A DNA stretch of 64,000 nucleotides from Streptococcus ovis DSM 16829 (GTDB taxonomy: Bacteria > Bacillota > Bacilli > Lactobacillales > Streptococcaceae): assembly GCF_000380125.1 (NCBI RefSeq), contig NZ_KB904580.1, positions 96,301 through 160,300 of the forward strand, given 5' to 3'. Numbering within the stretch: the first letter of the stretch is position 1; each line of letters starts with the position of its first letter. Positions 15,836-53,958 of the stretch are shown piece after piece. The notes under the pieces were generated by a model. That model did not search any database. It was not told the DNA's origin and saw only the letters and a list, made by a program, of their open reading frames with translations. The translations under genes and the position numbers were made by a program.

Positions 15836-16534
15836 CTACTTCAAACTCCAACCGCCATCAATCTTGACAATTTCGCCCTGCATGGAAGTCATCTTACCAC
15901 TTGCAAGAAAGAGGGTCAGCTCTGCGATTTCTTCTGGTTGCGTCCAGCGTTTGATGGGCGTTTGATCTGCCACCCATTCGGCCAACCCATCTGGCTCAAA
16001 GTCACTGGCAGTCATGCTAGTCTTGACCGCGCCTGGTGCAATCCCAAAAACTTGAATTCCTTTGTCTGCATAATCCAGCGCCAACTGGCGGGTAAAACCA
16101 GCTAAGGCGTGCTTACTAGCTGTATAGGCAACCCCTCCACCACCAGCTAAAAAGCTGGCAATGGAACACATATTGATAATGATGCCTGACTTTCTTTCAA
16201 CCATCTGTGCTAGATAGTGACGGGTCAACTTGACCGTCGCAAAGAAATTTGTCTGAAAGACTTGGTCAAACTCCTCCTCTGAAACGTCAAGCAAGGGTTT
16301 GTAATCGTCTAATATTCCTGCGGTATTGCACAAGATATCCACTGCTGGTACAACATCGGTCAGCGCAGCGATATCTTTTGTCAAATCGAATTGGACAAAC
16401 TGAAAATCACCCGACAAGTCAGGCTTTGCCGACTTGTCTACACCGTAAACAGCGTAGCCATTTTCCAAAAAGACACGCGCCTGAGCTAGACCAATACCAG
16501 AGGAGACGCCTGTAATGAGGACTGTTTTAGCCAT
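15836..16534 (-). CDS. Short-chain dehydrogenase/reductase
   Basis: 232 residues starting MAKTVLITGVSSGIG. The NAD(P) loop TGVSSGIG (8-15), NTAGIL (NNAG-equivalent), and the catalytic set Ser (NMCSIASF), Tyr-x-x-x-Lys (YTASK) are present, so the enzyme should be active. Closest in form to 3-oxoacyl-ACP reductase-type SDRs, but the gene is far from any fatty-acid cluster and the substrate is unknown. A start 18 bases upstream is possible; I prefer this one because family members begin here. It overlaps the DUF2829 gene by 8 bp. Confidence 0.88.
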   Translation of the reverse strand: MAKTVLITGVSSGIGLAQARVFLENGYAVYGVDKSAKPDLSGDFQFVQFDLTKDIAALTDVVPAVDILCNTAGILDDYKPLLDVSEEEFDQVFQTNFFATVKLTRHYLAQMVERKSGIIINMCSIASFLAGGGGVAYTASKHALAGFTRQLALDYADKGIQVFGIAPGAVKTSMTASDFEPDGLAEWVADQTPIKRWTQPEEIAELTLFLASGKMTSMQGEIVKIDGGWSLK

Positions 16535-16763
16535 GGACTTCCACCCAGTCATCGGCTAACACATCACAAGGCGTCGGGCTCCACATGGAAAAGCCTTCTC
16601 CGTCTCCTGAAACGTTGATGAGGAAATAAGGGGTTGCCTCTAGTTTTTCACCATGGACTTCAATCGTATCAAAGAGCTGGACGTAGTTTTCTGCACCACC
16701 CCAGCCTGTGCGAACATATTTTTTCTTAGCCTTTAAGCCTGGTAAAATCTCTTCAAAAGTCAT
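16527..16763 (-). CDS. DUF2829 (Tad2-like) small protein
   Basis: 78 residues: MTFEEILPGLKAKKKYVRTGW, then PYFLINV and the family hallmark MWSPTPCDVLADDWVEV. This is the DUF2829 fold; phage members (Tad2) bind and sequester cyclic ADP-ribose signals and so block Thoeris defence. Here the gene is chromosomal, in an operon with an SDR and a DUF3977 gene and with no phage genes nearby, so the role may be different. Good ribosome site (AAGGAGAAG) and an extended -10 promoter upstream. Confidence 0.78.
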   Translation of the reverse strand: MTFEEILPGLKAKKKYVRTGWGGAENYVQLFDTIEVHGEKLEATPYFLINVSGDGEGFSMWSPTPCDVLADDWVEVHG

Positions 16764-16912: not shown

Positions 16913-18178
16913 ATGCCTAATCTTATTGACTATATAGAGGCTAGCCAGTACGATAGTTTTTATGACAAGGAAGTAAACACCCTAGACGTTTTAGCTTTAA
17001 CGGAAGTTACCTATCTTCCCTTTGATGGCATGGTAGCTGCTGATTTTTCACCCGATAAGAATATTTCTTTACATCACTTGGCAGTCCTATTTGACCAACA
17101 TTTTCAAAAAAAATATCCTTCTTTAGGTATGGTCAATAGAAATCGCTTGACCTTGCTCAGCCACCTCTCCACCTATAAACGCTATAAGCACATCAAGGCC
17201 TTTGCCTTTATCAATGACTACAATCTAGATAGTCAAAAACAATTTGCGGCTATCACCTATCAAGTCCGTCCAAAAGAATTCGTGGTTGTTTTCCGTGGAA
17301 CAGACGATACGCTGATTGGGTGGAAAGAAGACTTCCATATGACCTATATGGCAGAAATCCCTGCCCAAAGGACGGCTACCGAATACCTTACTGCCCTTCT
17401 TTCAAATCTGGACGGGCGAGTTACCATCGCTGGCCATTCCAAGGGAGGCAACTTAGCCATTTATGCAGCCAGTCAGATTGCCCCTCATTTGCAAGAACGC
17501 ATCCAGCAAATCTTCAGTTTTGACGCACCAGGAGTGCATGCTTCTGTCCTCGAATCATCAGGCTTTAAGGCGGTCGAGGGGAAAATCAAGCACTTTATTC
17601 CACAAGGATCTATCGTGGGGATGATGTTGGAGCCTCCTAAAAATGCTCTCATTGTCAAAAGTAAGGCCAATGGTCTTATGCAACATATCAGTTTTTCTTG
17701 GGAAATCGAACAGAATCAGTTTAAATTCGTTCCTGCTGTCACAAAAGATAGTCTACAGGTCGACCAGACCCTAAAAACATGGACAGCTAGCCTAAGCGAC
17801 GAAGAATTAAGAGAGTTTTTTGACCTTTTCTTTGGCATCTTTATACAAGCAGGAATTCTTCGATTTGGAGATATAACCACTGATACTCTTAGTAAAATTC
17901 AAAAAGTCATCCAAAATAGCCAGCAACTTACACCAAAACAGCAGACTATGATGGAGCATAGTGTCCGTCTGTTAATTGATACACGGGTACAAATCTGGAA
18001 AGAAGGATTGCCTGAGTTACCATCCTTACCAGACTTACAACTTTCTAGAAAAATAGACAGTCTCTCTGAGTTGCAATTACAAGAAAAACTCCATCATTTA
18101 CCCAAACTGAAAAAAGTCAATTTATCCGTTCCCATCCGAAATCTCTTACCTGATAAAACTGAAAAAGACAAGTCCTAG
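16913..18178 (+). CDS. Mbeg1-like (DUF2974) alpha/beta hydrolase
   Basis: 421 residues. Starts MPNLIDYIEASQYDSFYDKEVN, typical of the streptococcal Mbeg1-like family. It holds the lipase-type nucleophile elbow GHSKGG (Ser about 176) after a strand, with FRGTDDT (oxyanion region) before it and FDAPGVH after it as the acid site. The C-terminal 120 residues are helical. Cytoplasmic (no signal). Likely a lipase/esterase of unknown substrate. Its last three codons and stop (Asp-Lys-Ser-TAG) lie inside a palindrome that is copied again at 19254. Confidence 0.85.
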   Translation: MPNLIDYIEASQYDSFYDKEVNTLDVLALTEVTYLPFDGMVAADFSPDKNISLHHLAVLFDQHFQKKYPSLGMVNRNRLTLLSHLSTYKRYKHIKAFAFINDYNLDSQKQFAAITYQVRPKEFVVVFRGTDDTLIGWKEDFHMTYMAEIPAQRTATEYLTALLSNLDGRVTIAGHSKGGNLAIYAASQIAPHLQERIQQIFSFDAPGVHASVLESSGFKAVEGKIKHFIPQGSIVGMMLEPPKNALIVKSKANGLMQHISFSWEIEQNQFKFVPAVTKDSLQVDQTLKTWTASLSDEELREFFDLFFGIFIQAGILRFGDITTDTLSKIQKVIQNSQQLTPKQQTMMEHSVRLLIDTRVQIWKEGLPELPSLPDLQLSRKIDSLSELQLQEKLHHLPKLKKVNLSVPIRNLLPDKTEKDKS

Positions 18179-18188
18179 GACTTGTCTT
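18165..18188. terminator. Palindromic terminator, copy 1
   Basis: Perfect 20-bp palindrome at 18167-18186 (arms GACAAGTCCT / AGGACTTGTC), extended to 24 bp by flanking pairs. It contains the Mbeg1-like stop codon. The same 20-mer is at 19254-19273. Confidence 0.85.
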
Positions 18189-18195
18189 CAATCTA

Positions 18196-18225
18196 AGAGT
18201 CTGGGACTTTTGTCTCAGACTCTTT
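18196..18225 (+). terminator. Second terminator hairpin after the Mbeg1-like gene
   Basis: AGAGTCTGGGAC (18196-18207), TTTT loop, GTCTCAGACTCT (18212-18223): a 12-bp stem with one wobble pair followed by TTTCTT. Confidence 0.75.
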
Positions 18226-18273
18226 CTTAAAGAATAATGACCTATCATAGTAAGTTAAAACTTTTAACGGTTG

Positions 18274-18450
18274 TTAGAAAGCATAAAATACTAAAACAAA
18301 AATAGAAAGTAAAGAAATAAATATAGCTGTTAAAATTGCAATTTTTTTTATGATTGGCTTTACTTTAGGATTCATTCCTATAACTAAAATTATAATATCT
18401 GAAAGAATTATAAAAGAAAGAGTAAGAGAGATTACTGTTTTTTCAATCAT
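18274..18450 (-). CDS. Small two-helix membrane protein, possible immunity protein
   Basis: 58 residues: MIEKTVISLTLSFIILSDII, a short basic loop (NPKVKPIIKK), then a second helix AILTAIFISLLSIFVLVFYAF. I use the ATG at 18450 because it overlaps the stop of the secreted-protein gene as ATGA (18447-18450), which couples the two. No family is recognised. Small basic two-helix membrane proteins coupled to a secreted toxin-like gene are often immunity proteins; that role is inferred from context only. Confidence 0.7.
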   Translation of the reverse strand: MIEKTVISLTLSFIILSDIIILVIGMNPKVKPIIKKIAILTAIFISLLSIFVLVFYAF

Positions 18451-19067
18451 TGTGAAGTAATCCAATGAGGAGTTGCATTGGTTAAAGTACCTATACAACC
18501 AATAATAATCCCTCTTCCAGCTGCATTGTTATAAGATACTAGTCCTGAGCCGATAGCAAATATTCCAGCAATGATGCCAGCTACTGCACTAGCGGGAACC
18601 AAATTTGCTAGTGCGGCAACTCCAGCAGCCGAAGTAGCAGCTCCAGCCCCCATATTTAAAGCAGCTGCCAATTTATTTGAGCGAGTATTATCTAAATATA
18701 TATCTACACCTTTCCATGTATAGACAATCTTGTTAACGCCTCTGAACGCTCTAAATGAATATTTCGGACTGATTCTGACAGAATTATCAGTAAATTCAAC
18801 GTTATACAAATTGGTATCAGTAGTATTTAAAACTTCTTGTTTATACTTCTCTGACAATTTTATTGTTTGATTCTCTTCATCGAGCAATAAATAACCCTCT
18901 TCTACAAGGGTTTTAAAAGGAGATTCAATATTCAGATATGGTGTATCGCTTTCACTTGAAATGTTACTGCTATTCTCTGTTGCAAAAACAGTTGTGATAG
19001 GAACTACACTATTTCCAAATATGAGCAAGCAAGAACTGAATAAGGCAATTTTTTTAATAATTTTCAT
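18447..19067 (-). CDS. Secreted bacteriocin-like protein with Gly/Ala-rich hydrophobic C-terminus
   Basis: 206 residues from the ATG at 19067 (AAAGGAG upstream). A clear signal peptide, MKIIKKIALFSSCLLIFG... with cleavage likely after VFA (residue 29). Residues 30-105 are polar. The C-terminal part begins WKGVDIYLDN (about 118-127) and then a long Gly/Ala/Val stretch, GAGAATSAAGVAALAN (140-155), AVAGIIAGIFAIGSG (161-175), ending NNAAGRGIIIGCIG. This layout resembles large secreted bacteriocins of the geobacillin-26 type and other pore-forming peptides. It forms a coupled pair with a small membrane protein inside a direct-repeat-bounded insert. Confidence 0.65.
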   Translation of the reverse strand: MKIIKKIALFSSCLLIFGNSVVPITTVFATENSSNISSESDTPYLNIESPFKTLVEEGYLLLDEENQTIKLSEKYKQEVLNTTDTNLYNVEFTDNSVRISPKYSFRAFRGVNKIVYTWKGVDIYLDNTRSNKLAAALNMGAGAATSAAGVAALANLVPASAVAGIIAGIFAIGSGLVSYNNAAGRGIIIGCIGTLTNATPHWITSQ

Positions 19068-19139
19068 ATTCGACTCCTTTTCAAAAAAATAGTATTTTAC
19101 CTGCAAAACTTCTAGATAGGTCATGTTACACTTTATTAT

Positions 19140-19177
19140 ATTATACCAAAAAAACAATCTGTTTTTTTTAGTATAAT
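19140..19177. promoter_or_regulatory. Promoter palindrome upstream of the bacteriocin-like gene
   Basis: TGG-TATAAT on the minus strand (TATAAT 19140-19145) would drive the bacteriocin-like gene. It forms one arm of a near-perfect palindrome (19140-19156 with 19160-19177, one mismatch and one extra T) whose other arm carries TATAAT on the plus strand. Possible operator or two opposed promoters. Confidence 0.55.
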
Positions 19178-19250
19178 TAGGTTATTGACAAAATCTTTTT
19201 TACTTATCTGACACACTCGAATTAGCCATTCCGCAAATAGTTCTGCAACC

Positions 19251-19276
19251 ACAGACAAGTCCTAGGACTTGTCTGT
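19251..19276. terminator. Palindromic terminator, copy 2
   Basis: The same 20-bp palindrome as at 18167, here extended to 26 bp by its flanks. It contains the stop codon of the minus-strand DUF1803 gene, which also ends Asp-Lys-Ser-TAG. Confidence 0.85.
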
Positions 19277-19924
19277 CTTTGTAAATACTAAGGTTTCTTT
19301 ATCTAGCTGCATGGTCAATCGATAACTATGCTCTTCTACTTGCTCGATGAAACCAAGCTCTTGCAAGGCTAGTACAAAAATATCCGTTCTTCTTTGTAAA
19401 ACTTTTTCTTTTCGAGCAAATTTTAAGAGAAAGCTCGTCATGTATTTAAGAGCGTAATCTGGATTGACATCTCCCAAAATGGCATACAATTTTTCCTGCT
19501 CTTTGGACAAAGGCTCCTGCGTTCGCATCTTATAAAAATAGGATTCAAGCGTGTTTTTCTCCCTTAGAAAATCAACTCTTTCTTCAATGATCACCGCATT
19601 GGTTTGATTTGTTGTTTGACAAACAAAAGCGACAGATGTCAAGTCCTCAAAGACTGAAGATTCTGTCTCTACAAAAACCTCTTGTCCAAGCTCCAATCCT
19701 TCTGTAGAATCCAATAACTTGAAACCATTGCGGTAACGCCGATTCTCTCGGATAATATAGCCTGCATTGATGTAGCTTTCCAGTTGTCGGTCCACATTTT
19801 TTTCGTCTGAAAATACCTGTTTGATGTGACGAAGGGTCACTTCCTCGTGCTGGTCTAGATAATTGATTAGATTGTTAAAAAATGCCTGTTTAGTCAACTT
19901 ATTTGGATGAATAATGATAATCAT
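19262..19924 (-). CDS. DUF1803-like protein
   Basis: 220 residues, MIIIIHPNKLTKQAFFNNLINYLD..., a helix-turn-helix-like N-terminal half (LRHIKQVFSDEKNVDRQLESYINAGYIIRENRRYR, here given in short: a winged-helix-like region at about 28-68) and a helical C-terminal half. It resembles the streptococcal DUF1803 family. No ribosome site precedes the ATG; TATAAT ends only 6 bases upstream, so the mRNA is probably leaderless. Function unknown; a DNA-binding role is possible. The gene is convergent to the Mbeg1-like gene across the insert. Confidence 0.72.
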   Translation of the reverse strand: MIIIIHPNKLTKQAFFNNLINYLDQHEEVTLRHIKQVFSDEKNVDRQLESYINAGYIIRENRRYRNGFKLLDSTEGLELGQEVFVETESSVFEDLTSVAFVCQTTNQTNAVIIEERVDFLREKNTLESYFYKMRTQEPLSKEQEKLYAILGDVNPDYALKYMTSFLLKFARKEKVLQRRTDIFVLALQELGFIEQVEEHSYRLTMQLDKETLVFTKTDKS

Positions 19925-49257: not shown

Positions 49258-52200
49258 TTATTTTTCGCTATACCAAGCGATGCCTTCTTTTCTCCAACCG
49301 CGTTTGCCGAGTGTATTGTACTCGTTCATATCCTTGGTATAGTGATGTTTCTTAATCCCTGGATGGTAGAGACGATACACTTTCACTTCACCATGAGAAC
49401 GATAAGCAACTCCCTCTTTTCTCCAGCCACGTGTGCCTAATACCTTATACTCATTAGCATCTTTTGTATAGAGATGAACACGAAGACCTGGATGGTAGAG
49501 ACGATAAACTGGTACTCCTTCGTTCGTCGTTGTTTTCCAAGCTTCTCCTTCAAATCTCCAACCACGTTTTTTCAACGTATCACGCTCATTAGTATCAGTA
49601 GTGTAGAGATGGACTTTGAGACTTTCATGATAAAGACGGTAAACAGGTTTAACCGTATCTTTCTGTTTCGGAACAGATGGTTTAGTAGTTATCTTAGTCG
49701 TCGTTGTTGGCTTCGTCGTTGATTTGGTTGTCGACTTAGATACTGTGGTTGTTTTAGGGATTAATGGCGTTTTAGGTACCGTTGTTGCTTTAGTTGTTGT
49801 ACTTGGCTTCGTTGCCACCTTAGTCGTTGTGGACGCCTTAGTCGTTGTTAACGCCTTGGTCGTTGTTGGGACCTTAGTTGTCGTTGAAACCTTGGTCGTT
49901 GTTGGGACCTTAGTCGTTGTTAACGCCTTAGTTGTTGTTGGGACCTTAGTCGTTGTTAACGCCTTAGTTGTTGTTGGGACCTTAGTCGTTGTTAACGCCT
50001 TAGTTGTTGTTGAAACCTTAGTCGTTGTGGACGCCTTAGTCGTTGTTGGGACCTTAGTTGTCGTTGAAACTTTGGTCGTCGTTGGGACCTTAGTTGTTGT
50101 TGGAGCTTTGGTTGTCGTTGGCGCCTTGGTCGTCGTTGGAACCTTAGTCGTTGTTGGAACTTTAGTTGTCGTTGGAACCTTAGTCGTTGTTGGGGCTTTG
50201 GTTGTCGTTGACGCCTTAGTCGTCGTTGGGACCTTAGTTGTTGTTGGAGCTTTGGTTGTTGTTGAAATCTTGGTCGTCGTTGGCGCTTTAGTTGTTGTTG
50301 GGACCTTAGTCATTGTTAACGCCTTGGTCGTCGTTGGAACCTTAGTCGTTGTGGACGCCTTAGTCGTTGTTGGGACCTTAGTTGTTGTTGGAACCTTAGT
50401 CGTTGTGGACGCCTTAGTCGTTGTGGGAACCTTAGTCGTTGTGGACGCCTTAGTCGTTGTGGACACCTTGGTCGTCGTTGGCGCTTTAGTTGTTGTTGGA
50501 CTAGAAGTTGTAGATTTAGAGGTTGTTGACTGAGTAGTTGTTGTCTTATCTGGTTTGATGTTTTCCTTCAATACCCATTTCACACCTGAATCGTTCTTTG
50601 GTACACCATGCTCGTCTAATTGAGGTTGCTCTGTTGTCTCAATCAGCTTGTCTTCATTATTTGTAGCATAGTAGACAATCTCTTTTTCTGCTTCCTGCAA
50701 TGAAGTTAAAACATTTTGGATATGACCTAAATCTTGCTCTCCTTTAGTAGCAATCTCTGATTGCCCATAAGTAAACATCTTCTCTGGATCATCTGATTTC
50801 ACTTTTACAATGCTTACTTTCTTATTAGAATCTCCTTCATAATCAATCGTTTCCTTCACAATTATTGGAGTTGCAGGAATATAGAGAACTGTTGCAGAGA
50901 GTGGATCCAAAGTAATTTTCTTCTCTCCATTCGTTTTACCAATTTTGCCGTAGAGACCTTGTGAATTGGTTGTGACAATAAAAACATTTGAAAAATCATT
51001 GATTTTACCAAATTTTTCATCTCGTCCATAATAATATTCTTGATCTCCTAATACGAGTTTAGGATCAGCAGAATTTGTATTATTATTAAAGACAACGAGA
51101 TATTTTGCGCCATTTGAACGTTGGAGTTCATAGGTCACAATACCTGACCCAGGTTGAGCATTTGTCACCGTCATCTGTTTTTTTAGTTGCTCGTAATCTG
51201 ATATATGGAAAACGGAATCAGATTGACGTAATGCAAAGAGGGACTTACTAAAATTCACTGCATCCACATTCGTTTGAGTCAAACTCCAATCAATCTGATT
51301 ATAGGTATCACCACTATTATAAGTATTATGTGACTCTTTTTTCGTCCGCAAGAACTCTTGCCCATGTTGTGAGAAGTTAATCCCTTGAGACAAGGCACTC
51401 ATAGCAGTTGCAAGTTCAACCCGCTTCAGGTGTTTCTGTGCATCATCAGTTGGATTATATTTCCAAAGTAAGTCATTTAACGTCATGCCGTCGTGTACTT
51501 CGACATAGTTCAATTGTTGGGCTGCATTTGCATATGGTTCAACCGATCGATCAAGTCCACCCAGCAATGCCTTTGAAATCGGTGTTGTATTGGAAATATT
51601 ATCATTTTTATCTGGACCATTAACAAATCCAGGTGCACCAGGATTATGATTATAGGCAGACCCTGACACGGCGTCACGCGCCTGATTATCAAAGAAGCCG
51701 TACTCTGGAAGTAATTTTGCATTGCCAATACTTGCCTTCACACCTTCTTCCACATTATTTGGTAGGTAATTCCCCATCGAATTCCAACCTTCACCATATG
51801 TTACAATATTTTTGTCTATTAAATCTAGGGCATTACGGACTTGTGTCAATGTTTTGGTATCTAAGTCACTCATGGCATCAAAGCGGAAACCATCCATACC
51901 ATACTCTTTGGCCCAGTAAACGACAGAGCTGACGATATACTGACGCATCATTTCAGAATTCGAACGAACAGCATTTCCAACACCGACATCATTGTTCATA
52001 GCTCCATCGCCATTGACGGCATAATAGTAGCCTGGAACAGTGTACTCAAATGGATTCTTCTGTGCATCATATAGGTGATTGTAAACAACGTCTAGATTGA
52101 CATTAATCCCTTCATCGTGGAGGGTACGCATCATCTCTTTCAGTTCTTGAATACGATTAGCTGGATCAGCTGGATTTGTTGAATATGACCCTTCTGGTAC

Positions 52201-53958
52201 ATTGTAATTTTTAGGGTCATAACCCCAGTTTTGCTGGTTCAGATGCTGCCCATCTGGTTCAAAATCCGAAATTTCAGTATTTCGAGGATCATGTTGATCC
52301 AACTCTGGAACTGTTTCAAAATCATTCAATGGCATCATCTGGATGTAATTAACTCCAAGATACTTGAGATAATCCAATCCCGTTTTTTGATTCGTTGCAG
52401 TATCTTTCGTATCTTTCTGTACAACACCAAGGAAATTCCCTTTTTTAGACTCCTCAATACCGGAGTTTTTCGCAATCGAAAAATCACGCACATTGGTTTC
52501 AAGAACACTCATTGCCGAAAGTGAGGAAACCCGCTTATTATTAGTTTTTGTAACCGGTGCTCCTATTTTTGAAGCATCCAATAAAACTGAACGATTGCCA
52601 TTTTGAACAGTGGCAACAGAGTATGGATCTTGGGTAGTGACTGTACGGTCCTCACCTACATAGAATGCAGCAATTTCTTTCGGAGTAAGTGCTCTTGTTA
52701 CTGTCCGTTGTTTGACATCTGCTTCTTGCGAAATTCCAGATAATAATTCTTTACCTTGCCCTTCACGAATAGCACTATTGATATAATGATAGGCTACAGG
52801 TTTCCATGTACCATCCTGTTGTTCTTTAGCCAGTGCAACTGTTTTTTGAATAAAGTAGGAGTTGGGTGCAGTGATGGTGTAATCATAGGCAATACCAGAT
52901 TCTATCAAATCACCCAAAGTAGTAGCGTCTACAGTCGCTGACCAAAGTCCGATGGTATTGCTTTGGTGGTCTTCTGGGTGTGCGTCTGTCCCTTTTTGCA
53001 TCTCAATTTGCGTTTTGACTTGAGCATCCTCTGCAGTGGACTGATAGATGTTTAAAGTAACTTTTGTAGCCGTTGGCGCCCAAAGGTTAAATTGAGCATT
53101 TCCATCTTTTAGTGTTGCACCGAGTTCCCCCTTTGCACCTACGACTTGAACATTTCCTTGCCGATCAACAATTTTATCTGTGTAACCAAATTTTTTATCA
53201 AATTCTGGTGTTTGAACATTAAGGAACTGTGAATACCAGCCATCTGCTTCACCATGATAAATATCTGTATCTGTCAGCTCATTGACTGGGGCGAGAAGTC
53301 CATCATCGCTATCTCCAAAAATTTTCTTAGCACCAACTAACCTATTCCATCCTGTTTGATTTTCTTGAAAATCTGTACCAGTCGCAATGATATAATGAAG
53401 TTGTTTTCTGCCAATTTCCGCTTGTACAGTTAGAATATACTCTAATTGACCATCTTTTGTTGTAGCACGTTGCATCTCTACCCAGCGACCATCTTTATCA
53501 TGCTGAGCATTATCTCCCCATACCCACGCATAAAATCTTCGTCCATCATTATTATTTGTAGGTTTATAATGAACCCGCACAACTGTTCGATTCTCATCAA
53601 TCTGAGGAGCGGATTCCGGTGTTGATATTGTTGTAGTAGTCGCTTTTGTTGTAGACGGAAGTTCTGTTGTCGTTGGGAGTTCTGTTGTTGTCGGAACTTC
53701 CTGTGGAGAGGTTGTATCCTGTGTGATAGGCTCAGCGGTAGTGGTATCCACTACGCCAACGTTTGCATCAGTGACCTGCGTATCTACCGTTGTTTGAGCA
53801 CGGACATTTCCCGTTTCTTCTGCCAAAACAGCACTGGCAGGTGTGATGATGCTAGACGCAACAGTGACAGATACAAGACCTATGCTTAACTTCTTCAATG
53901 CGTACTTATGTGGTTTCTCCATATGTGACGACCGTTTAGAGATGGAATGTTGTTTCAT
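49258..53958 (-). CDS. pulA: Cell-surface type I pullulanase with Thr-rich stalk and C-terminal YRLYHPG repeats
   Basis: 1566 residues. Debranches pullulan, starch or glycogen at alpha-1,6 links. Long signal peptide with a YSIRK-like ALKKLSIGLVSVTVA. CBM41 (about 125-230; VHYKPTNNNDGRRFYAWVWG in part), CBM48-like N domain, then GH13_14 with type-I motif NWGYDPKNYNVPE, VVYNHLYD, nucleophile near Asp693 (DGFRFDAM), acid/base near Glu721 (TYGEGWNS) and VEVHDGM near 822. Residues about 1139-1414 are TTTKxx repeats. Three repeats (YRLYHxx ... HLYTxDxNE, DUF5648-like) end the protein; no LPXTG is found. Promoter with cre. Confidence 0.93.
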   Translation of the reverse strand: MKQHSISKRSSHMEKPHKYALKKLSIGLVSVTVASSIITPASAVLAEETGNVRAQTTVDTQVTDANVGVVDTTTAEPITQDTTSPQEVPTTTELPTTTELPSTTKATTTTISTPESAPQIDENRTVVRVHYKPTNNNDGRRFYAWVWGDNAQHDKDGRWVEMQRATTKDGQLEYILTVQAEIGRKQLHYIIATGTDFQENQTGWNRLVGAKKIFGDSDDGLLAPVNELTDTDIYHGEADGWYSQFLNVQTPEFDKKFGYTDKIVDRQGNVQVVGAKGELGATLKDGNAQFNLWAPTATKVTLNIYQSTAEDAQVKTQIEMQKGTDAHPEDHQSNTIGLWSATVDATTLGDLIESGIAYDYTITAPNSYFIQKTVALAKEQQDGTWKPVAYHYINSAIREGQGKELLSGISQEADVKQRTVTRALTPKEIAAFYVGEDRTVTTQDPYSVATVQNGNRSVLLDASKIGAPVTKTNNKRVSSLSAMSVLETNVRDFSIAKNSGIEESKKGNFLGVVQKDTKDTATNQKTGLDYLKYLGVNYIQMMPLNDFETVPELDQHDPRNTEISDFEPDGQHLNQQNWGYDPKNYNVPEGSYSTNPADPANRIQELKEMMRTLHDEGINVNLDVVYNHLYDAQKNPFEYTVPGYYYAVNGDGAMNNDVGVGNAVRSNSEMMRQYIVSSVVYWAKEYGMDGFRFDAMSDLDTKTLTQVRNALDLIDKNIVTYGEGWNSMGNYLPNNVEEGVKASIGNAKLLPEYGFFDNQARDAVSGSAYNHNPGAPGFVNGPDKNDNISNTTPISKALLGGLDRSVEPYANAAQQLNYVEVHDGMTLNDLLWKYNPTDDAQKHLKRVELATAMSALSQGINFSQHGQEFLRTKKESHNTYNSGDTYNQIDWSLTQTNVDAVNFSKSLFALRQSDSVFHISDYEQLKKQMTVTNAQPGSGIVTYELQRSNGAKYLVVFNNNTNSADPKLVLGDQEYYYGRDEKFGKINDFSNVFIVTTNSQGLYGKIGKTNGEKKITLDPLSATVLYIPATPIIVKETIDYEGDSNKKVSIVKVKSDDPEKMFTYGQSEIATKGEQDLGHIQNVLTSLQEAEKEIVYYATNNEDKLIETTEQPQLDEHGVPKNDSGVKWVLKENIKPDKTTTTQSTTSKSTTSSPTTTKAPTTTKVSTTTKASTTTKVPTTTKASTTTKVPTTTKVPTTTKASTTTKVPTTTKALTMTKVPTTTKAPTTTKISTTTKAPTTTKVPTTTKASTTTKAPTTTKVPTTTKVPTTTKVPTTTKAPTTTKAPTTTKVPTTTKVSTTTKVPTTTKASTTTKVSTTTKALTTTKVPTTTKALTTTKVPTTTKALTTTKVPTTTKVSTTTKVPTTTKALTTTKASTTTKVATKPSTTTKATTVPKTPLIPKTTTVSKSTTKSTTKPTTTTKITTKPSVPKQKDTVKPVYRLYHESLKVHLYTTDTNERDTLKKRGWRFEGEAWKTTTNEGVPVYRLYHPGLRVHLYTKDANEYKVLGTRGWRKEGVAYRSHGEVKVYRLYHPGIKKHHYTKDMNEYNTLGKRGWRKEGIAWYSEK
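49715..50540 (-). repeat. 18-bp tandem repeats (TTTKxx stalk) in pulA
   Basis: In-frame 18-bp units coding for Thr-Thr-Thr-Lys plus two variable residues (Val-Pro, Ala-Pro, Ala-Ser, Val-Ser, Ala-Leu). They fill roughly 275 residues. Near-identical units make slippage likely, so stalk length should differ between isolates, and read-through ORFs on the plus strand here are artefacts. Confidence 0.9.

What the first reader, a model, noticed from the sequence alone, without database searches (positions are those of the whole stretch)
18165..19276. Insert bounded by a duplicated palindromic terminator
The Mbeg1-like gene (plus) and the DUF1803 gene (minus) both end in Asp-Lys-Ser-TAG, and both ends are encoded by the same 20-bp palindrome (18167-18186 and 19254-19273). 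This is best explained if the two genes once converged on a single shared terminator, and about 1.07 kb was then inserted there, duplicating the palindrome. The insert is AT-rich, has its own terminator and carries a secreted protein plus a small membrane protein, but no transposase. A mobile or exchangeable cassette that targets terminators is a plausible reading.
Basis: partly seen in the sequence, partly recalled or inferred. Interest (0 to 1): 0.8.

Follow-up and report, generated by a model that had tools for sequence, protein, structure and literature searches.

The report
Bacteriocin-like cassette inside duplicated terminator
A small pair of genes that looks like an antibacterial protein and its immunity protein seems to have been inserted between two tail-to-tail bacterial genes, leaving a copy of their shared palindromic stop signal on each side; related species carry other cargo in the same gap, so the spot looks like a reusable slot rather than a new kind of mobile element.

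Summary
A 22-bp palindrome lies at 18166-18187 and 19253-19274, nowhere else in the held genome at up to 3 mismatches, and encodes the end of both convergent genes (Mbeg1-like, DUF1803). Joining the flanks gives genes overlapping by 4 nt. Among 13 same-contig pairs found (own genome included), 8 have -30 to 209 bp between stops, both sister lineages among them. So this is very likely an insertion. The cargo, a 206-aa secreted-type protein and a 58-aa two-helix membrane protein overlapping its stop, looks like a class III-type bacteriocin and immunity pair; activity is untested. Homologues occur in 7 of 284 Streptococcus genomes, some near plasmid replication genes. Other species hold a DUF2599/membrane pair, an ABC transporter or IS remnants in the gap: an exchangeable slot. 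"Targets terminators" is not supported: none of the 4 other filled same-contig gaps has a duplicated palindrome. Best reading: acquired cassette captured by recombination in a hotspot; how the palindrome doubled is unresolved. Odd detail: each copy is symmetric beyond the shared 22 bp. New member of a known kind.

The parts
16913..18178 (+). Mbeg1-like alpha/beta hydrolase gene (421 aa), left flank; ends DKS-TAG inside the left palindrome
   Evidence: PF11187 E 2.2e-83; ORF
18165..18188 (.). Left copy of the palindrome (24 bp perfect; 22 bp shared with the right copy); keeps the T-run for minus-strand transcripts
   Evidence: listed as terminator-like on the minus strand (4 sites found, 2.4 expected from shuffles); fold -16.9 kcal/mol with flanks
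18188..19252 (.). Inserted 1,065 bp, 31.8% G+C
   Evidence: 8 of 13 same-contig pairs (own genome counted in the 13) have no room for gene cargo
18195..18224 (.). Hairpin brought by the insert (13-bp arms, 4-base loop); could end Mbeg1 transcripts
   Evidence: fold -21 kcal/mol, z -5.45; 26-bp core single-copy in the genome at up to 3 mismatches; NOT listed as terminator-like by the scan
18274..18450 (-). Small membrane protein (58 aa, two TM-like helices), putative immunity protein; its ATG overlaps the stop codon of the secreted-protein gene
18447..19067 (-). Secreted-type protein (206 aa: hydrophobic N-terminus 7-25, invariant TWKG, YLD and NAAGRG motifs, hydrophobic segment 159-177), putative bacteriocin
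   Evidence: sub-threshold Geo26A match 15.8 bits, cut-off 40
19251..19276 (.). Right copy of the palindrome (26 bp perfect); no T-run for DUF1803 transcripts
   Evidence: not listed as terminator-like
19262..19924 (-). DUF1803 gene (220 aa), right flank; ends DKS-TAG inside the right palindrome
   Evidence: PF08820 E 2.2e-34

Best explanation
Ancestrally the Mbeg1-like and DUF1803 genes met tail to tail (stop codons overlapping in CTAG) on one palindromic, probably bidirectional terminator. A horizontally acquired two-gene cassette, a Sec-type secreted class III-like bacteriocin and its small membrane immunity protein, was inserted at that terminator, and the 22-bp palindrome is now on both sides. 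The gap is an exchangeable slot: related species carry another secreted/membrane pair, an ABC transporter or IS elements there. The cassette has no recombinase, so entry most likely depended on host recombination of transformed or plasmid-borne DNA, with long homology in a flanking gene and a short or illegitimate junction at the terminator. In action: the secreted protein would attack related bacteria, probably at the membrane, and the membrane protein would protect the producer; the split terminator leaves DUF1803 with a hairpin lacking its U-tract, so read-through from DUF1803 into the same-strand cassette is possible. Shown: duplication, variability of the slot, the gene pair and its patchy distribution. 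Strongly inferred: insertion. Inferred: bacteriocin activity, immunity, route of entry, read-through.
For: Joined flanks: palindrome of exactly 22 bp, both ORFs at full length (421 and 220 aa), stops overlapping by 4 nt. Linked relatives: gap -30 (G013), 4, 18, 33, 122, 132, 138 and 209 bp in 8 of 13 same-contig pairs. Tree of 15: G000 groups with G195 and G013 at support 1.000, both without cargo. Other cargo: G115 DUF2599 secreted-type protein (E 1e-12) plus 85-aa membrane protein; G228 the same membrane protein, stretch with the secreted gene missing; G165 ABC ATPase plus permease; G121 Y1 transposase fragment; G291 split at contig ends that carry the two ends of an IS630-type transposase; G107 split likewise, ends not identified. 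Replacement by recombination: G165 and sister G151 are 97-98% identical on either side but unalike over the gap and the last part of Mbeg1; G228 carries a 176-bp second copy of the DUF1803 3' end (86%) beside the cassette, as expected of one homologous and one illegitimate junction. Patchy, transferable cargo: 7 of 284 Streptococcus genomes, 9 of 395 in the order, 6 of these outside Streptococcus; near Rep_3 genes in G298 and G281; a distant relative matches 4 plasmids of Bacillus and Brevibacillus; 97% DNA identity over 714 bp between G018 and G490 of another family. Bacteriocin reading: in 7 of 7 alignment members a 47-59-aa ORF overlaps the stop of the secreted gene, with two TM-like helices in 6 and one in 1; in G136 a LytTR regulator and an ABC ATPase whose best model is lantibiotic protection (below its cut-off) lie within 5 kb.
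Against: No strain of the same species could be compared, so the true empty site was not seen; the sisters are only about 60% identical in these proteins and have other terminator sequences. The duplicated palindrome is seen only here: G115, G165 and G121 show no exact direct repeat of 12 bp or more across the cargo. An exact 22-bp duplication is not an obvious footprint of homology-facilitated illegitimate recombination. No bacteriocin model reaches its cut-off: Geo26A scores 15.8 of 40 bits in 1 of 7 members, and three unrelated models have better, equally sub-threshold E-values. No PDB match, no plasmid or phage match for the G000 protein, no relative in viral contigs. The membrane proteins are poorly conserved (31 and 33% in the pairs aligned), so 'immunity' rests on position and topology. 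The insert hairpin is not listed as a terminator.
Confidence: 0.7

Rival explanations
1. Transposition in trans: a transposase with a symmetric target cut the palindrome at its edges and made a 22-bp target-site duplication; the cassette moved as cargo.
For: Exact 22-bp direct repeat flanking the insert; the repeat ends exactly where the joined-site palindrome ends.
Against: No transposase and no inverted repeats at the insert ends; insert single-copy in the genome, other hits being 21-32 bp at E near 0.1-0.6; relatives elsewhere share only the genes; palindrome found only at these two places.
Confidence: 0.12
2. Campbell-type integration: a circular molecule (for example a small plasmid) carrying the cassette and one copy of the palindrome crossed over with the chromosomal palindrome, then lost the rest.
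For: Gives exact direct repeats of the crossover site without a dedicated enzyme; relatives of the cassette lie near Rep_3 genes, one on a 4,190-base contig.
Against: 22 bp is short for homologous recombination (general knowledge); the insert holds no plasmid gene; no plasmid record matches the G000 protein; the palindrome was not found in the 196 other genomes, which included G018, G103, G136 and G155 but not G281 and G298.
Confidence: 0.15
3. The cassette is ancestral and other lineages lost it; the two identical terminators are convergent or maintained by gene conversion.
For: Cassette relatives exist across the order.
Against: None of the 14 other linked genomes holds this family at all; both sisters are without cargo; a shared 22-bp end of two unrelated convergent genes needs one origin.
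Confidence: 0.04

Closest known systems
Variable segments / recombination hotspots between conserved genes (Touzain 2010, PMC2884548, abstract and passages seen); homology-facilitated illegitimate recombination is described there for S. pneumoniae, A. baylii and P. stutzeri
   Same: Variable DNA between conserved flanks, different content in different genomes; a section heading gives some 10% of the small segments as flanked by direct repeats.
   Different: Seen here between species, not strains; exact duplication of a palindromic terminator is not in the passages seen (the word terminator does not occur in that text).
Geo26 / alicyclobacillin 24 class III bacteriocins (PMC13176240, passages seen)
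   Same: Sec signal peptide, similar size (206 against 238 and 245 aa), hydrophobic segment towards the C-terminus; the Ali24 gene is on a plasmid.
   Different: NF035925 match only 15.8 of 40 bits; the TWKG, NAAGRG and HW..SQ motifs of this family are covered by no model above cut-off in the scans made.
Dysgalacticin with immunity factor DysI (PMC8308785, passages seen)
   Same: Streptococcal Sec-exported 220-aa bacteriocin, plasmid-encoded, next to a gene for a membrane-associated immunity protein.
   Different: Sequences were not compared: the record was not held.
IS elements or group IIC introns that prefer palindromes or terminators (recalled; a search listing was seen but none of its papers was read for this)
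   Same: Insertion at a hairpin.
   Different: No transposase, intron or terminal repeats here.

Membership tests
Exchangeable slot / integration hotspot between conserved genes | Same conserved flanks, different cargo in different genomes, some empty | tested here: met
   13 same-contig pairs: 8 with -30 to 209 bp and 5 with cargo of four kinds (secreted/membrane pair of G000; DUF2599 pair and its remnant in G115/G228; ABC in G165; IS200 remnant in G121); 2 more split at contig ends, one with IS630 ends
Exchangeable slot / integration hotspot between conserved genes | Presence/absence among strains of one species | not testable with these tools
   one genome per species is held
Exchangeable slot / integration hotspot between conserved genes | More insertions than in comparable convergent gaps of the same genomes | not tested
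   no control gaps were collected
Insertion sequence or transposon | Own transposase | tested here: not met
   no ORF over 50 aa besides the two genes, neither a transposase
Insertion sequence or transposon | Terminal inverted repeats inside the duplication | tested here: not met
   no inverted pair at the insert ends
Insertion sequence or transposon | Target-site duplication | tested here: inconclusive
   22-bp duplication present, but it coincides with a palindrome and has other possible causes
Recombinase-site cassette (integron or pdif type, recalled) | Recognition site repeated beside other cassettes in the genome | tested here: not met
   only 2 copies at up to 3 mismatches
Geo26-family class III bacteriocin | Family model above curated cut-off | tested here: not met
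   15.8 bits, cut-off 40, 1 of 7 members
Class III-type bacteriocin (works like) | Secreted precursor with adjacent membrane immunity gene | tested here: inconclusive
   overlapping small ORF in 7 of 7 members, two TM-like helices in 6; signal peptide judged from hydropathy and by eye only; activity not testable
Homology-facilitated illegitimate recombination product | One homologous and one non-homologous junction | tested here: inconclusive
   pattern fits G228; not resolvable for G000 without a close empty relative

The most novel reading that the evidence does not exclude
Insertion by palindrome regeneration: the shared hairpin terminator was broken at its centre, the cassette was joined in, and each broken arm was copied back into a full palindrome from its own gene-side sequence, so each gene kept a hairpin. 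This predicts what is seen: identity between the copies over exactly the joined-site palindrome (22 bp), and each copy symmetric further out with its own flank (24 bp with A-T on the left, 26 bp with C-G and A-T on the right). Under a plain duplication the three extra symmetric pairs are chance, roughly 1 in 64 by hand count and noticed after the fact. Convergent terminators would then be self-healing landing sites for foreign DNA.
Probability: 0.1. Interest if true: 0.75.

Novelty: new member of a known kind. Interest (0 to 1): 0.42.

Why it matters
It gives a readable fossil of how a small antibacterial-looking gene pair is captured at a place where it disrupts neither neighbour. It points to a family of bacteriocin-like proteins with small membrane partners, without a model above cut-off in the libraries scanned, spread over several genera of the order, and to a slot (Mbeg1-like/DUF1803) in which further competition genes can be looked for. 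If the palindrome-regeneration reading held, it would be a new route by which hairpin terminators accept foreign DNA.

Tried and rejected
Rejected: transposon (no transposase, no terminal repeats); repeated recombinase site (2 copies only); phage cargo (no match in phage records; none of 142 pattern stretches in viral contigs encodes a relative); loss in relatives. The genome-contig scan returned 9 DUF1803 loci, of which only S. varani has the Mbeg1 gene within the stretch fetched.

Led nowhere: plasmid searches with the G000 protein and the L140 relative: no match; with the G298 protein: one weak match, E about 1. Structure prediction never ran, so there is no fold evidence. Literature: DUF1803 (8 papers listed, 0 occurrences of that term), terminator-duplicating islands (0 papers), hotspots with bacteriocins (3 listed: 1 listed; none read). 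That this slot is undescribed rests only on these searches. PMC3784515 and PMC10969869 were looked at in passages and not used.

Limits: match lists are cut after about 150 rows; the 15 linked genomes were picked by eye from listed coordinates, so linked pairs further down may be missed. No control gaps were compared. The tree is unrooted and from two proteins. The 1-in-64 figure is a hand count.

Full report
What was checked. The repeat is real: AGACAAGTCCTAGGACTTGTCT lies at 18166-18187 and 19253-19274, identical over 22 bp, with 1,065 bp between. The left copy is a perfect palindrome of 24 bp and the right one of 26 bp; no other perfect palindrome of 16 bp or more exists in the window. Shuffled windows give none at up to 3 mismatches. 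The exact 20-mer is found at two places in the own genome and in none of the 196 other Streptococcus genomes of that search; at up to 3 mismatches the own genome still has only these two. In 424 kb of the own genome it is the only such palindrome pair, apart from one A/T-only 14-mer.

Empty site. Joining the flanks gives a palindrome of exactly 22 bp, both reading frames at full length, and stop codons overlapping by 4 nt in CTAG. Relatives have that arrangement. From the match lists, which are cut after about 150 rows, I picked by eye 15 genomes in which the two genes are linked (13 on one contig, the window's genome included, and 2 split at contig ends). Eight of the 13 have -30 to 209 bp between stop codons; in G013 (S. 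varani, judged from contig length) the two genes overlap by 30 bp across one hairpin. In an unrooted tree of the 15 the window's genome groups with G195 and G013, support 1.000, both without cargo. Insertion is therefore much more likely than loss. No strain of the same species was available, and the sisters are only about 60% identical in these proteins, so the immediate ancestor was not seen.

Cargo. The 206-aa protein has a hydrophobic N-terminus like a signal peptide and a hydrophobic segment at 159-177; the 58-aa protein has two TM-like helices and starts in the stop codon of the first. The first has relatives in 7 of 284 Streptococcus genomes (own included) and 9 of 395 genomes of the order (own and two other Streptococcus included), with 50 invariant positions in a 7-member alignment. 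In 7 of these 7 a 47-59-aa ORF overlaps the stop of the secreted gene; two TM-like helices are scored in 6 and one in 1. In G298 and G281 the gene lies near Rep_3 replication genes. In G136 it lies between recO-like and plsX-like genes (names recalled) with a LytTR regulator and an ABC ATPase, best model lantibiotic protection but below its cut-off, within 5 kb. Between G018 and G490, of different families, the DNA is 97% identical over 714 bp. A more distant relative (L142) matches 4 plasmids of Bacillus and Brevibacillus. No Pfam or NCBIfam model reaches its cut-off in the scans made. The one bacteriocin match, Geo26A, is 15.8 bits against a cut-off of 40 in 1 of 7 members, and three unrelated models have better E-values, all sub-threshold. 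There is no PDB match. Bacteriocin plus immunity is my reading from architecture and context; it has not been shown.

The slot. Five of the 13 gaps are filled: G000; G115 with a DUF2599 secreted-type protein and an 85-aa membrane protein, the secreted protein unrelated in sequence to that of G000; G228 with the same membrane protein but without the stretch that holds the secreted gene; G165 with an ABC ATPase and permease; G121 with a Y1 transposase fragment. Of the two split genomes, G291 has the two ends of an IS630-type transposase at its contig ends; the ends in G107 were not identified. Close pairs show how content changes: G165 and G151 match at 97-98% on either side but not over the gap and the end of Mbeg1, so a block was replaced; G115 and G010 differ from just after the Mbeg1 stop to just inside DUF1803; G228 carries a 176-bp second copy of the DUF1803 3' end (86%) beside the cassette. 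These footprints fit transformation with recombination in the flanks, including homology-facilitated illegitimate recombination, which PMC2884548 (passages seen) describes for S. pneumoniae and two other competent species. Whether this gap is filled more often than other convergent gaps was not tested.

What does not fit a terminator-targeting element. The gaps of G115, G165 and G121 hold no exact direct repeat of 12 bp or more across the cargo, and the repeat in G228 is gene sequence; homology of the insert with relatives in six other genomes stops at the two genes; the palindrome is not repeated elsewhere. So the duplicated palindrome is a feature of this one event.

Effect on transcription (inferred). 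Only the left copy is listed as terminator-like, on the minus strand, with its T-run; the region as a whole has 4 such sites against 2.4 expected from shuffles. The right copy, at the end of DUF1803, folds well (-19.1 kcal/mol) but has no T-run. The hairpin at 18195-18224, brought by the insert (-21 kcal/mol), could serve Mbeg1, though the scan does not list it. Read-through from DUF1803 into the same-strand cassette is possible.

An unexplained detail. Each copy is symmetric beyond the shared 22 bp, and with its own flank: A-T on the left, C-G and A-T on the right. Under a plain duplication that is chance, about 1 in 64 by hand count and seen after the fact. It would follow naturally if each arm had been copied back into a full hairpin after a break at the centre. 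This is a lead, not a result.

Verdict. Insertion and duplication: strongly supported. Bacteriocin-like cassette in an exchangeable slot: likely. Terminator-targeting mobile element: not supported. Ordinary in kind, with one curious footprint and a protein family that no scanned model covers.

Noticed in passing
16527-16763 (-): 78-aa protein matching the Tad2-like (Thoeris anti-defence 2-like) domain, E 9.6e-20, next to a short-chain dehydrogenase gene in what looks like ordinary chromosome; also within about 2 kb of the Mbeg1 gene in S. varani.
   Followed up: no
49258-53958 (-): 1,566-aa protein, pullulanase-like by eye (CBM_48, DUF5648 and a YSIRK signal just below cut-off), with a long TTTK-type repeat region that also leaves an open 269-aa frame on the other strand.
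   Followed up: partly
L107:1689-1861 and 2415-2590: G228 carries a second, 86% identical copy of the DUF1803 3' end (176 bp aligned) beside an orphan 85-aa membrane gene whose secreted partner gene is missing.
   Followed up: partly
L047:2603-3336: A second secreted-looking protein (189 aa) plus a 55-aa small protein shortly after the cassette relative in G103; no NCBIfam family and only a sub-threshold Pfam match for the first.
   Followed up: no
L139:1274-2223 and L122:2706-3990: Cassettes of two genomes from different families are 94-97% identical in DNA; the G490 copy of the secreted gene is much shorter (85 aa), the membrane gene is present.
   Followed up: partly
L106:2069-2671: DUF2599 secreted-type protein with a downstream membrane protein in G115; 6 plasmid records match it, annotated DUF2599, in Enterococcus, Acidipropionibacterium, Tistrella and Corynebacterium. 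May be another bacteriocin-like family.
   Followed up: partly
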